From: Brucella pseudintermedia
GTDB lineage: Bacteria > Pseudomonadota > Alphaproteobacteria > Rhizobiales > Rhizobiaceae
Direction: 5' to 3'
DNA length: 64,000 bases
Assembly (NCBI RefSeq): GCF_008932435.1
Contig: NZ_WBWE01000001.1
Span: 467,237 to 531,236 of the forward strand
Below are positions 31,353 through 34,704 of this stretch, piece by piece (the first letter of the stretch is position 1; each line of letters starts with the position of its first letter). A model generated the notes under the pieces. The model had not been told where the DNA came from and ran no database searches. It saw only the letters and a program-made list of their open reading frames with translations. The position numbers and the translations under genes were made by a program.

Positions 31353-32221
31353 TGCGCATTTTTCTGTTCGGAGCCGGTTATTCCGCCCAAGCCTTTGCTC
31401 AAAGGATGGCCGGTGAAGCTGAACGCATCGACGGAACCACACGGCACGAGCAGAAATTTCCCCTCCTTGAACAGGCAGGCATAAAGCCGCTGCTTTTCGA
31501 TGGTGAGACGCCCTCGCCGAACCTTCTGGACCGGCTTGCCCAATCGACCCATGTGGTCGTTTCAATCTCTCCCGGCGAAAGCGGCGATCCCGCCGTCGCC
31601 GTGGTTGAGGAAGCGCTTCGCCGTCCCGACAACACCATCCGCTGGATCGGCTATCTGTCGACGGTCGGCGTCTATGGCGACCATCAGGGCGCGTGGGTGG
31701 ACGAAACCACAGCCTGCAAGCCTGCCTCCCGCCGCAGCCTTGAGCGCGTCGAAGCCGAAAAGGCATGGGGGCAATTGAGCGAACGGCATGGAACACCGCT
31801 GGCGATCTTACGTCTCTCTGGCATTTTCGGGCCGGGCCGCAACGCCTTCATCAATCTGGAACGCGGCAACGCACGGCGCATCGTGAAAAAGGACCAGGTC
31901 TTCAACCGCATCCATGTCGGTGACATTGCCGGTTCCTTGCGCTTTCTGGCAGGCACCGACACAGGCGGCATCTTCAACATCACCGACAATGAACCAAGCC
32001 CGCCGCAGGATGTCGTCACCTATGCGGCGGAATTGATGGGCGCGACGCCGCCGCCGGAAGTCCCCTTCGAGGAGGCCGATCTGACGCCGATGGCGCGTTC
32101 CTTCTATGGCGAGAACAAACGCGTCTCCAACCGCCGCATCAAGGATCTCGGTTACGAATTTGCCTATCCCGACTACCGGACAGCCTTTTCGGCCATGTGG
32201 CGCGAGGATAGCTGGCGCTGA
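31352..32221 (+). CDS. NAD(P)-binding epimerase/reductase-like SDR protein (YeeZ type)
   Basis: The protein has 289 residues, beginning MRIFLFGAGYSAQAFAQRM, a dinucleotide-binding motif. WIGYLSTVGVYGDHQGAWVDE resembles the atypical SDR fold, and ILRLSGIFGPGRNAF is typical of YeeZ-like epimerases. The substrate is unknown. The start overlaps the queG stop (TGATG), so the two are coupled. It is the last gene of the GST-queG-epimerase run. Confidence 0.83.
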   Translation: MRIFLFGAGYSAQAFAQRMAGEAERIDGTTRHEQKFPLLEQAGIKPLLFDGETPSPNLLDRLAQSTHVVVSISPGESGDPAVAVVEEALRRPDNTIRWIGYLSTVGVYGDHQGAWVDETTACKPASRRSLERVEAEKAWGQLSERHGTPLAILRLSGIFGPGRNAFINLERGNARRIVKKDQVFNRIHVGDIAGSLRFLAGTDTGGIFNITDNEPSPPQDVVTYAAELMGATPPPEVPFEEADLTPMARSFYGENKRVSNRRIKDLGYEFAYPDYRTAFSAMWREDSWR

Positions 32222-32272
32222 AGCCGTGCTGCTGCTAAAAGCAAGCCTGCAACCGAACCGGGACAACACAGA

Positions 32273-32302
32273 ATGAGCAGTACCGAACTCGCAACCAGAT
32301 AA
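32273..32302 (+). CDS. Candidate 9-codon leader peptide upstream of the FloR-like gene
   Basis: ATG AGC AGT ACC GAA CTC GCA ACC AGA TAA encodes MSSTELATR. GGGA lies 8-10 bases upstream. The stop codon is followed at once by a perfect hairpin. The known cmlA phenicol exporter gene is controlled by translational attenuation through a nine-residue leader (MSTSKNADK), which is strikingly similar in size and first residues. I infer a leader peptide whose stalling opens the hairpin; there is no direct proof. Confidence 0.5.
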   Translation: MSSTELATR

Positions 32303-32400
32303 GCCGCAACAGCCTTTCCGACCTGTTGCGGCGTCTGCCCCGGACCAACTTCCCTTAAAACGCATCCCGACGATGCGCGTTTATAAAAGGCAGACAGCCG
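32303..32400 (+). promoter_or_regulatory. Candidate attenuator: overlapping alternative stem-loops
   Basis: Stem A: GCCGCAACAG (32303-32312) with CTGTTGCGGC (32323-32332), perfect, starting right after the leader stop. Stem B: CGGCGTCTGCC (32329-32339) with GGCAGACAGCCG (32389-32400), one bulged A. A and B share bases 32329-32332 and cannot fully form together. Inside B, CGCATC (32361-32366) pairs with GATGCG (32372-32377). Stem B ends 29 bases before the exporter ATG. This has the layout of an attenuator. Confidence 0.5.
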
Positions 32401-32429
32401 CCCGATTTTCCTCGAGCGGATGCTTAGTC

Positions 32430-33623
32430 ATGCCTTTTGATAACAAACAAACTCCTCAGTGGAGCTATTCCCTGCCGTTCGCGCTGGCGCTGATGGCTCC
32501 TTTCGACATTCTCGCCTCGCTGGCCATGGACATCTACCTGCCGGTGGTGCCGTCCATGCCCTCAATCCTGCAAACAACACCCGCCATGGTGCAGCTCACC
32601 CTCAGTCTCTACATGGTGATGCTGGGCGTCGGGCAATTGCTGTTCGGCCCATTGTCGGACCGTTTCGGACGCAGGCCGGTCCTCATTGGCGGCGGGCTGG
32701 TTTTCGCCCTTGCGTCTTTCGCCCTGGCGATCACCGACAATGCCACGCTATTTGTGGCGCTTCGCTTCGTGCAGGCAACGGGGGCGTCGGCGGCGCTGGT
32801 CGCCACTTTCGCAACTGTCCGCGACGTTTATGCGACGCGTCCCGAAGGGGCGACGATCTATGGCCTGTTCAGCGCCATGCTTTCCTTCGTCCCGGCGCTT
32901 GGGCCGATTGCCGGCGCACTGATTGCAAAGGGTTTCGGATGGCGGGCAATCTTCGCCACGCTCGGACTGTTCGGCCTCGCCGCAACGTGGCGCGCCTTGC
33001 GCCACTGGCACGAGACACGACCGAGCAGCACTGCGCCAGCAGCCGGAAGTCTTGGCCGGATCGTGAAGGACTTTTCGTTCTGGACCTATACGCTCGGATT
33101 CGCGACAGCCATGGGCACGTTCTTCGTTTTCTTTTCCACCGCACCGCGCATTCTGATCGAACGCGGCGGCTTTGGTGAAACCGGCTTCAGCTTCGCCTTT
33201 GCCAGCGTTGCCGTCGTCATGATCGCCGCCACGCGTATCCTGCCCCGCCATACGCAGAAATGGGGCGCGCGCATCAGCGTGGCGCTGGGCATGGCGACGC
33301 TGCTTGCAAGCGCCCTGCTTCTGGGCCTCGGCGAGACATTGCTCAAGCCCTCGTTCCTGAGCCTTATCGTCCCGATGTGGCTTGCCGCTGTCGGCATCGT
33401 TCTCACCGCATCGATGACTGCCAACGGTGCGCTTGCCGCCTTTGATGACAGTGCGGGCATGGCGGTCGCGGTCTATTTCTGCATCCAGAGCCTGATCGTC
33501 AGCCTTGCTGGAACAGCACTTGTCATCTTCCTGCCCGGTGATACCGCATGGCCCCTGATCGCCTTCTGCACGGCGATGCCATTGCTGGTTTTGACCTTGC
33601 TGGCAAGGCTGCGGCAGCGCTGA
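32430..33623 (+). CDS. FloR/CmlA-like phenicol efflux MFS transporter
   Basis: The protein has 397 residues and 12 membrane segments. From residue 20 the sequence follows FloR closely, as I remember it: LMAPFDILASLAMDIYLPVV, then TTPAMVQLTLSLYMVMLGVGQ, GPLSDRFGRRPVLIGG (MFS motif A), ATFATVRDVYATRPEG, and GTFFVFFSTAPRILIE. FloR exports chloramphenicol and florfenicol in exchange for protons. It could also move other small amphipathic compounds. Start ATG 32430 matches the family; an in-frame ATG at 32373 would add an unlikely leader. No transposon is next to it, so it looks native to the chromosome. Confidence 0.85.
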   Translation: MPFDNKQTPQWSYSLPFALALMAPFDILASLAMDIYLPVVPSMPSILQTTPAMVQLTLSLYMVMLGVGQLLFGPLSDRFGRRPVLIGGGLVFALASFALAITDNATLFVALRFVQATGASAALVATFATVRDVYATRPEGATIYGLFSAMLSFVPALGPIAGALIAKGFGWRAIFATLGLFGLAATWRALRHWHETRPSSTAPAAGSLGRIVKDFSFWTYTLGFATAMGTFFVFFSTAPRILIERGGFGETGFSFAFASVAVVMIAATRILPRHTQKWGARISVALGMATLLASALLLGLGETLLKPSFLSLIVPMWLAAVGIVLTASMTANGALAAFDDSAGMAVAVYFCIQSLIVSLAGTALVIFLPGDTAWPLIAFCTAMPLLVLTLLARLRQR

Positions 33624-33753
33624 ACGAAATGGCGGTCGGCAGCACAAACTGTCGACCGCCATTGAAGCCCCGCCGTTGACACAGCATAATGCCCGCAATC
33701 CGGCTGCCTTGATTCGCAGCCGCAGCGCCCTTTGGCAAAACTGGAATTGCCCC

Positions 33754-34704
33754 ATGATCGCAAACAGCCCCAAGATCGCAAACAGATTGAAGAAGTTCGT
33801 TCTCGCAGCTTCGCTGGCCGCAATGATCGCGCCCGACTTCGTGCCCATGGCCGCGGCGGAAGACATGCCCGCCAAACAGGCATTTGGCGCGCAAGTGCTG
33901 CCGGTGCTTACGCAAGAGCCGCAATCCATCGGCTTTTATGCGAAGGGATGCCTCACCGGTGCCGTGGCCCTGCCGACCGACGGACCAAACTGGCAGGTGA
34001 TGCGCCTTTCGCGCAATCGCCGCTGGGGCCATCCGCGCATGATCGGCCTTCTGGAAAAACTGTCCCGCGATGCGGCAAAGGACGGCTGGCCCGGCCTGCT
34101 CGTCGGCGACATTTCGCAGCCGCGCGGCGGCCCGATGCTGACCGGCCATGCCTCGCATCAGGTCGGCCTCGATGCTGATATCTGGCTGACGCCGATGCCG
34201 AAAAAACGTTTTACCGACGCCGAGCGCGAGAGCGTGTCAGCCGTATCGATGCTGCAAAAAGATTCGCTCTATGTCGATCCGAAGAAATGGACCCCTGCCC
34301 GCACGGCCCTGCTGAAACACGCCGCAAGCTATCCGGAAGTGGAGCGCATCTTCGTGCATCCCGGCATCAAGAAGCAGCTTTGCGACACGGTGACCGGCGA
34401 CAGAAGCTGGCTCGGAAAGGTTCGCCCCTATTGGGGTCATTTCTACCATTTCCATGTGCGCCTGACCTGTCAGCCCGGATCGCCCGAGTGCAAGGCACAG
34501 CCGAAGGTGCCTGCCGGTGACGGCTGCGACAAGTCTCTCGCCTGGTGGTTCACCGATGAACCGTGGAAGCCCGCCAAGCCATCGAAGGAACCGCCGAAAA
34601 AGCCGCGTCCGGTGATGGTCTCCGATCTGCCGAAGTCTTGCGCCGCCGTACTGAACGGCCCTGCGCCGAATTCGATCGCGGACGTCACCTACGGCGCGCA
34701 GTGA
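33754..34704 (+). CDS. mepA: Penicillin-insensitive murein endopeptidase
   Basis: The protein has 316 residues with an N-terminal signal segment (residues 13-36, ending AAAEDMP). The LAS-type zinc peptidase motifs are GDISQPRGGPMLTGHASHQVGLDADIW (HxxxxxxD), with a later ERIFVHPGIKKQLC and YWGHFYHFHVRL (HxH). It cleaves DD- and LD-cross-links in peptidoglycan in the periplasm. Start chosen at 33754 with GGAA upstream. Possible Pro/Lys-rich tail near residue 275 (KPAKPSKEPPKKPRP). Confidence 0.95.
   Translation: MIANSPKIANRLKKFVLAASLAAMIAPDFVPMAAAEDMPAKQAFGAQVLPVLTQEPQSIGFYAKGCLTGAVALPTDGPNWQVMRLSRNRRWGHPRMIGLLEKLSRDAAKDGWPGLLVGDISQPRGGPMLTGHASHQVGLDADIWLTPMPKKRFTDAERESVSAVSMLQKDSLYVDPKKWTPARTALLKHAASYPEVERIFVHPGIKKQLCDTVTGDRSWLGKVRPYWGHFYHFHVRLTCQPGSPECKAQPKVPAGDGCDKSLAWWFTDEPWKPAKPSKEPPKKPRPVMVSDLPKSCAAVLNGPAPNSIADVTYGAQ

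What the first reader, a model, noticed from the sequence alone, without database searches (positions are those of the whole stretch)
32273..32430. Leader peptide and mutually exclusive hairpins before a FloR-like phenicol exporter
Seen: a 9-codon ORF (MSSTELATR) with stop TAA directly followed by a perfect 10-bp stem (A). A second stem (B) shares four bases with A and ends 29 bases before the exporter ATG, with a third stem inside B. Known: the cmlA exporter is controlled by translational attenuation through a 9-residue leader, MSTSKNADK. Inference: a ribosome stalled by a phenicol in this leader would open A and change folding around the exporter start. Neither stem covers the exporter's own ribosome-binding region, so the exact mechanism may differ.
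Basis: partly seen in the sequence, partly recalled or inferred. Interest (0 to 1): 0.75.

Follow-up and report, generated by a model that had tools for sequence, protein, structure and literature searches.

The report
Chloramphenicol-sensing leader switch before drug exporter
Before a gene for a predicted chloramphenicol exporter lie a nine-codon reading frame and competing RNA hairpins, conserved before related exporters, that would likely switch the exporter on when the drug stalls a ribosome; this is a new member of a known kind of switch, with the predicted start-hiding hairpin now located.

Summary
A hairpin at 32384-32439 is predicted to bury the exporter's Shine-Dalgarno and ATG, and its 5' arm contains the 3' arm of stem B. 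That gives a classic switch: 1:2 + 3:4 (off) against 2:3 (on). Covering arm 1, as a ribosome stalled near the end of the leader would, lowers the predicted cost of opening the start region from 15.8 to 8.2 kcal/mol; 0 of 300 shuffles fell as far. All 106 non-redundant regions upstream of CmlA/FloR-family exporters that I examined carry a leader and stem. The residue expected to be penultimate at the stall is Ala, Ser or Thr in each, the published chloramphenicol-stalling context; conserved codons explain part of this. The floR leader and first stem are already in print (PMC5890775), which notes that the stem does not overlap the ribosome-binding site; the 3:4 hairpin is a candidate for the missing part. 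Stalling and induction are untested here, and helix 2:3 lacks covariation support. Verdict: a new member of a known kind, cmlA/floR-type translational attenuation.

The parts
32260..32263 (+). SD-like GGGA of the leader, 9 nt before its ATG
   Evidence: read in the sequence; an SD-like tetramer, by a lenient list, lies 4-17 nt upstream of 77 of 99 leaders
32273..32302 (+). leader ORF MSSTELATR + TAA; predicted stall with Thr8 in the P site, Ala7 penultimate, Arg9 codon in the A site
   Evidence: comparative tally
32296..32300 (+). tail of the leader, predicted to pair weakly with 32333-32337 (extension of arm 2), so a possible decoy of arm 3
   Evidence: folds (at least 3 expected pairs in 56 of 94 regions)
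32303..32312 (+). arm 1 (5' arm of stem A), predicted to be mostly covered by the stalled ribosome
32323..32339 (+). arm 2: pairs with arm 1 (off) or arm 3 (on)
32361..32377 (+). third stem-loop in the spacer between arms 2 and 3; not conserved
   Evidence: spacer absent in L028-L033
32389..32401 (+). arm 3: pairs with arm 2 (on) or with the SD region (off)
32384..32439 (+). hairpin 3:4, predicted to sequester SD and start codon
32414..32419 (+). SD-like GAGCGG of the exporter, inside arm 4
   Evidence: sequence
32430..33623 (+). CmlA/FloR-family chloramphenicol efflux MFS transporter gene, 397 codons + stop
   Evidence: NF033134 613.5 bits, cut-off 450; ORF

Best explanation
The stretch 32273-32439 is predicted to be a cmlA/floR-type translational attenuator that would switch on the downstream CmlA/FloR-family exporter when chloramphenicol stalls a ribosome in its nine-codon leader. 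Without drug (predicted): the leader is translated and released, arm 1 pairs with arm 2, arm 3 is left to pair with arm 4, and the exporter's SD and ATG are buried. With drug (inferred): the ribosome stalls with Thr8 in the P site, Ala7 penultimate and the Arg9 codon in the A site, and its front edge covers most of arm 1. Arm 2 is then free to pair with arm 3, and the start region is released. Shown directly: the leader, the arms, their complementarity, and their conservation before related exporters. Predicted by folding: the two states. Inferred from published stalling rules: the drug, the stall codon and the induction.
For: Anatomy. Flip: free MFE -59.6 (1:2 + 3:4) against -45.8 with 2:3 forced; with arm 1 covered, 2:3 is the MFE at -39.5 against -37.7 with 3:4 forced (front edge 32308), or -38.5 against -37.7 (front edge 32311). 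Cost of opening SD-to-start: window 15.8 free, 14.6 with only the 5' end cut, 8.2 with arm 1 covered; means over 94 regions 13.7, 12.4 and 7.9; it falls by more than 2 kcal/mol in 89 of 94. Window drop 7.6, 0 of 300 dinucleotide shuffles as large; three other loci 2, 6 and 11 of 300. Local fold: SD hexamer unpaired 0.18 on average over 94 regions against 0.46 in shuffles, under 0.25 in 84 of 94. Conservation: 99 of 106 regions have leader, stop and stem by a rule blind to the residues; the other 7 have a leader and stem with the stop moved downstream. Third-from-last residue A 69, S 25, T 5 of 99; last residue R 53, K 41, other 5. In the 7, the matching residue is A in 6 and S in 1. Covariation in 3:4: 0 of 500 shuffles reach the score and every slid version scores lower. 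1:2 is paired in 99.8% of cells. RNA model: 27 hits in 26 of 199 genomes; by coordinates 25 lie upstream of the family exporter, and one precedes an exporter remnant. Published: stalling is strongest with penultimate Ala, less with Ser or Thr (PMC8987054, passages); the cmlA mechanism (PMC8876359, passages); floR RNA rises with chloramphenicol, and eightfold with florfenicol as that paper cites Lang et al. (PMC5890775, passages).
Against: No stall, structure or induction was measured. Helix 2:3 has no covariation support: 73.2% of cells paired, 311 of 500 shuffles as high, in an alignment with visible slips; own partners beat the mean of swapped ones in only 62 of 94. With arm 1 covered, P(2:3) rises by more than 0.5 in 65 of 94 but stays below 0.5 in 27, including L021 and L034 of the same genus. 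Mean SD pairing at equilibrium hardly changes (unpaired 0.17 to 0.24). For stem 1:2 the number of pairs changed on both sides (3) is no more than shuffles often give (121 of 500). The Ala/Ser/Thr pattern is partly a nucleotide pattern: 89 of 99 codons are NCA, and all 69 Ala codons are GCA. The published floR induction was measured as RNA, which does not prove a translational switch.
Confidence: 0.87

Rival explanations
1. Transcription attenuation: stem A or 3:4 ends transcription, and leader stalling prevents that.
For: A leader ORF followed by alternative stems is also the layout of transcription attenuators (PMC5418344, passages).
Against: No terminator-like site on the + strand of 31900-33800; the two found are on the - strand, against 1.9 expected in shuffles. 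No U run follows stem A or 3:4. The 3:4 hairpin holds SD and ATG.
Confidence: 0.06
2. The leader is not drug-specific: any slowing of ribosomes near its end (release, Arg codon, other ribosome inhibitors) opens stem A, so it reports translation stress in general.
For: The last codon is K/R in 94 of 99, and the switch on paper needs only arm 1 covered.
Against: In 7 of 106 regions the stop codon lies elsewhere while the [A/S]-T-R site stays 11 or 12 nt from the stem; the chloramphenicol-context position shows the fewest residue types (3) of the last five.
Confidence: 0.05
3. Chance small ORF plus an ordinary intergenic palindrome with no regulation.
For: Short ORFs are common (one search lists several per locus), and the spacer of this locus holds non-conserved palindromes.
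Against: Leader, stop and stem recur in 99 of 106 regions, with compensatory change in 3:4.
Confidence: 0.02

Closest known systems
cmlA translational attenuator of the Tn1696/class 1 integron cassette (Stokes and Hall 1991, as described in PMC8876359, passages)
   Same: Nine-codon leader (MSTSKNADK in L132, L133), GCA codon at position 7, GCCGCA stem right after the stop, SD-to-start region predicted costly to open until arm 1 is covered, same exporter family.
   Different: Here chromosomal, leader MSSTELATR, a different SD context, a longer spacer with an extra stem-loop, and a different arm-2 extension.
Putative floR attenuator (PMC5890775, passages; Acinetobacter plasmid copy L129)
   Same: Nine-codon leader (MGNSKSADK in L129) followed by an inverted repeat before a FloR exporter.
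   Different: In the passages I read only leader and first stem are described, and the stem is said not to overlap the RBS; the 3:4 hairpin and the 2:3 alternative proposed here are not in them.
cat and ermC translational attenuators (PMC8876359, PMC5418344, passages)
   Same: Same logic: drug-stalled leader, start sequestered until the stem is disrupted.
   Different: Different resistance genes; homology of leaders and hairpins was not tested.

Membership tests
cmlA/floR-type translational attenuator | short leader ORF of about nine codons just before the stem | tested here: met
   32273-32302, 9 codons; of 99 leaders 79 have 9, 14 have 8, 3 have 11, 2 have 6, 1 has 10
cmlA/floR-type translational attenuator | chloramphenicol stall context (penultimate Ala, Ser or Thr) | tested here: met
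   Ala7 in the window; A/S/T in 99 of 99 by the residue-blind rule. Sequence only; the stall itself is not testable here
cmlA/floR-type translational attenuator | stem directly after the leader that a stalled ribosome would open | tested here: met
cmlA/floR-type translational attenuator | hairpin that sequesters the exporter SD and start | tested here: met
   predicted only; covariation
cmlA/floR-type translational attenuator | alternative helix 2:3 that frees the start | tested here: inconclusive
   energetics in favour; no covariation; 27 of 94 regions stay below 0.5 probability
cmlA/floR-type translational attenuator | controls a CmlA/FloR-family exporter | tested here: met
   the gene behind it matches NF033134 at 613.5 bits, cut-off 450; control itself not tested
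cmlA/floR-type translational attenuator | phenicol-inducible expression | not testable with these tools
   no expression data for this organism
FloR proper (NF000219) | curated FloR cut-off of 700 bits | tested here: not met
   515 bits: FloR-like, not FloR

The most novel reading that the evidence does not exclude
The attenuator is the ancestral, built-in sensor of the whole CmlA/FloR exporter family, long resident in chromosomes of Hyphomicrobiales and carried with the gene onto resistance plasmids. What is conserved is a stall codon at a fixed distance from the stem rather than the stop codon, and the leader's tail (usually GCA-GAC) does double duty: it encodes the stall residues and it mimics arm 3 by pairing with arm 2.
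Probability: 0.4. Interest if true: 0.65.

Novelty: new member of a known kind. Interest (0 to 1): 0.5.

Why it matters
Relatives of this exporter are widespread on plasmids: 2,952 of 72,556 plasmid records match it at E up to 1e-80, 2,248 of them at 60-80% identity, the band of the floR copies listed. Induction of floR has been reported, but in print the described stem does not reach the ribosome-binding site (PMC5890775, passages). The 3:4 hairpin and the 2:3 alternative give that gap a testable answer, and the chromosomal relatives give a natural set of variants for reading which leader residues and distances selection keeps. The Ala/Ser/Thr pattern agrees with the stalling context published from ribosome studies.

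Tried and rejected
Transcription terminator: no + strand site. Rfam: no match up to E = 1 in 32000-32700. Third stem as a repeat copy: in the window's own genome only 11 short secondary matches of 14-24 bases, E 0.25 to 3, so not established. Attenuator before other genes: of 27 model hits in 199 family genomes, 25 lie before the exporter, one before a remnant (L177) and one is an unresolved partial hit near a contig start (L176). That search used strict filters, and most genomes without a match are not listed, so its misses cannot be counted. A second significant copy in the own genome: none; the other five matches have E 0.087 to 0.82, the best being the other strand of the same stem. RNAalifold on the arm-3/arm-4 block gave no consensus structure, so that hairpin was folded row by row. 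In the plasmid copies L129, L130, L132, L133 and in L134, L142 the short-stretch fold picks a different local helix. Equilibrium SD pairing was a poor readout, so opening cost was added; both are reported. For the 7 divergent loci a first run used a wrong start in 6 of 7, corrected. The first leader lists were filtered on A/S/T, so the tally was redone residue-blind. That rule takes a stop followed within 0-1 nt by a stem-like pentamer and, where several fit, prefers an ATG start and the place nearest to -168. Papers PMC11489765 (passages) gave nothing used.

Rows dropped: 17 duplicates of 81 regions, then 1 of 107, leaving 106. Folding used 94 of 99 after removal of duplicates. Alignment A1 used 61 of 99 (one per distinct leader; L082, L139, L141, L142 left out). 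Alignment A2 used 30 that I chose. The tree used 71 rows with long loci and flags several long branches. Plasmid copies: 7 read, of 60 listed, of 2,952 records.

Full report
What is there. The gene behind them starts at ATG 32430 and matches the NCBI family model of CmlA/FloR chloramphenicol exporters (613.5 bits, cut-off 450). Of 12 named relatives found, 7 are called Brucella or Ochrobactrum. 17 of 35 genomes of the genus have a match to the exporter at E up to 1e-60.

Minimum-energy folding of 32260-32440 puts 32384-32439 into one hairpin that contains the exporter's GAGCGG (32414-32419) and ATG. All pairs tested are standard.

Does it behave as a switch on paper? For the full transcript, 1:2 + 3:4 is favoured over 2:3 by about 14 kcal/mol. 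With arm 1 covered up to 32308 or 32311, 2:3 becomes the minimum, by 1.8 or 0.8 kcal/mol. The cost of opening the SD-to-start region falls from 15.8 to 8.2 kcal/mol in the window. In 94 non-redundant regions it falls from a mean of 13.7 to 7.9, while cutting the 5' end but leaving arm 1 gives 12.4. Dinucleotide shuffles matched the window's drop in 0 of 300, and those of L085, L133 and L028 in 2, 6 and 11 of 300. Against this, SD pairing at equilibrium barely changes (unpaired 0.17 to 0.24), and 27 of 94 regions keep P(2:3) under 0.5 with arm 1 covered. The switch may depend on the order of synthesis, arm 3 before arm 4; that step is inference.

Relatives. I collected upstream regions of the family matches that searches reported at their E-value limits, plus the named loci and 7 plasmid copies. 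After removal of duplicates 106 remained. A rule that looks only for a stop codon followed by a stem-like sequence, blind to the residues, finds a leader in 99 of 106: 65 distinct leaders, 79 of 9 codons. The third residue from the end is Ala 69, Ser 25, Thr 5; the last is Arg 53, Lys 41, other 5. The first base of that codon lies 12 nt before the stem in 99 of 99, but the rule allows only 12 or 13, so this count adds little by itself. On a tree of 71 exporters the residue needs nine changes among Ala, Ser and Thr, at least seven of them forced by well-supported branches (Ala against the rest). Chloramphenicol stalls most strongly with Ala, and less with Ser or Thr, as the penultimate residue (PMC8987054, passages).

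The seven exceptions. All seven belong to one genus (g230) and do have leaders, located by the covariance model (10 to 25 bits, E 4e-5 to 0.5) and read. Their words end ...SATRQP...SSTRQP, or run on as ...SATRSAVNFII and ...SATRTAAMFII. The stop starts 4 or 18 nt after the first base of the stem, but the [A/S]-T-R site is still 11 or 12 nt before it. Opening cost falls by 3.1 to 10.1 kcal/mol when arm 1 is covered. This suggests that the stall site, not the stop codon, is the fixed point.

A caution on the residues. All 69 Ala codons are GCA, though only 24 of 219 Ala codons in four window genes are. 89 of the 99 codons are NCA, so part of the pattern is conservation of nucleotides. One reason may be that the leader's tail pairs with the extension of arm 2, as arm 3 does: at least three expected pairs in 56 of 94 regions. 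The cmlA copies show almost no such pairing (1.0 expected pair or fewer) and still use GCA, so this is not the whole explanation. CCA (Pro) does not occur among the 89, and ten Ser codons are TCG or TCC, which speaks for selection on the residue as well.

Covariation. Stem 1:2: 99.8% of 610 cells paired, 13 cells changed on both sides (0 of 500 shuffles as high), in three pairs (121 of 500 as high). Hairpin 3:4: five pairs with changes on both sides (4 of 500), score reached by 0 of 500, 43 distinct arm pairs among 94 rows. Helix 2:3: not supported. Its core hardly varies, and the rest is slipped in the automatic alignment. Duplex energies average -21.4 against -14.1 kcal/mol for shuffled arm 3, with 68 of 94 at or below the 5% level, but own partners beat the mean of swapped ones in only 62 of 94.

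Specificity. A covariance model of leader + stem A (R1, built from 61 rows that include the window and a cmlA copy, so their scores are by construction) gave 27 hits in 26 of 199 family genomes. By coordinates 25 lie just upstream of an exporter of the family, one (L177) precedes an exporter remnant, and one partial hit is unresolved. The search was run with strict filters.

What is known. cmlA attenuation is described in reviews (PMC8876359, passages; PMC5418344, passages). For floR, PMC5890775 (passages) reports a nine-residue ORF and an 11-bp inverted repeat, states that the stem does not overlap the RBS, and reports higher floR RNA with chloramphenicol. The window is therefore a chromosomal relative of a known kind, and the added point is the candidate sequestering hairpin and its alternative. 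Ten text searches showed me no description of this attenuator in Hyphomicrobiales chromosomes. I saw listings and the named passages only, the library holds open-licence papers only, and absence there is weak evidence.

Noticed in passing
L177 (G530:C9), about 1501-1720: A second attenuator copy followed by only about 20 codons of an exporter before the reading frame becomes unrelated: a remnant that kept its leader and stem.
   Followed up: partly
L137 (G1239:C1): A floR-type exporter preceded by the cmlA-type leader MSTSKNADK but a floR-type stem; looks like a natural exchange within the stretch shared by the two leaders.
   Followed up: no
window 32291-32293 and relatives: The Ala codon at the stall position is GCA in 69 of 69, a minority Ala codon in four window genes (24 of 219). 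Unexplained where almost no pairing with arm 2 is predicted (cmlA).
   Followed up: partly
window 32340-32388; L022, L025 and others: The spacer between arms 2 and 3 varies in length and holds different palindromes in the genus; the switch seems to tolerate inserts there.
   Followed up: partly
L121, L123-L128: One genus with leaders whose stop codon has moved into or past the 5' arm of the stem while the stall site keeps its spacing.
   Followed up: yes
G021:C22 and G021:C24 (L032, L036): One genome of the genus carries two exporters of the family with different leaders (MGNAKSAEK and MGTAKSADK).
   Followed up: no
window 32420-32440: A six-codon ORF (MLSHAF) starts right after the exporter SD and overlaps the exporter start; GCGGATG is frequent in relatives, probably incidental.
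   Followed up: no
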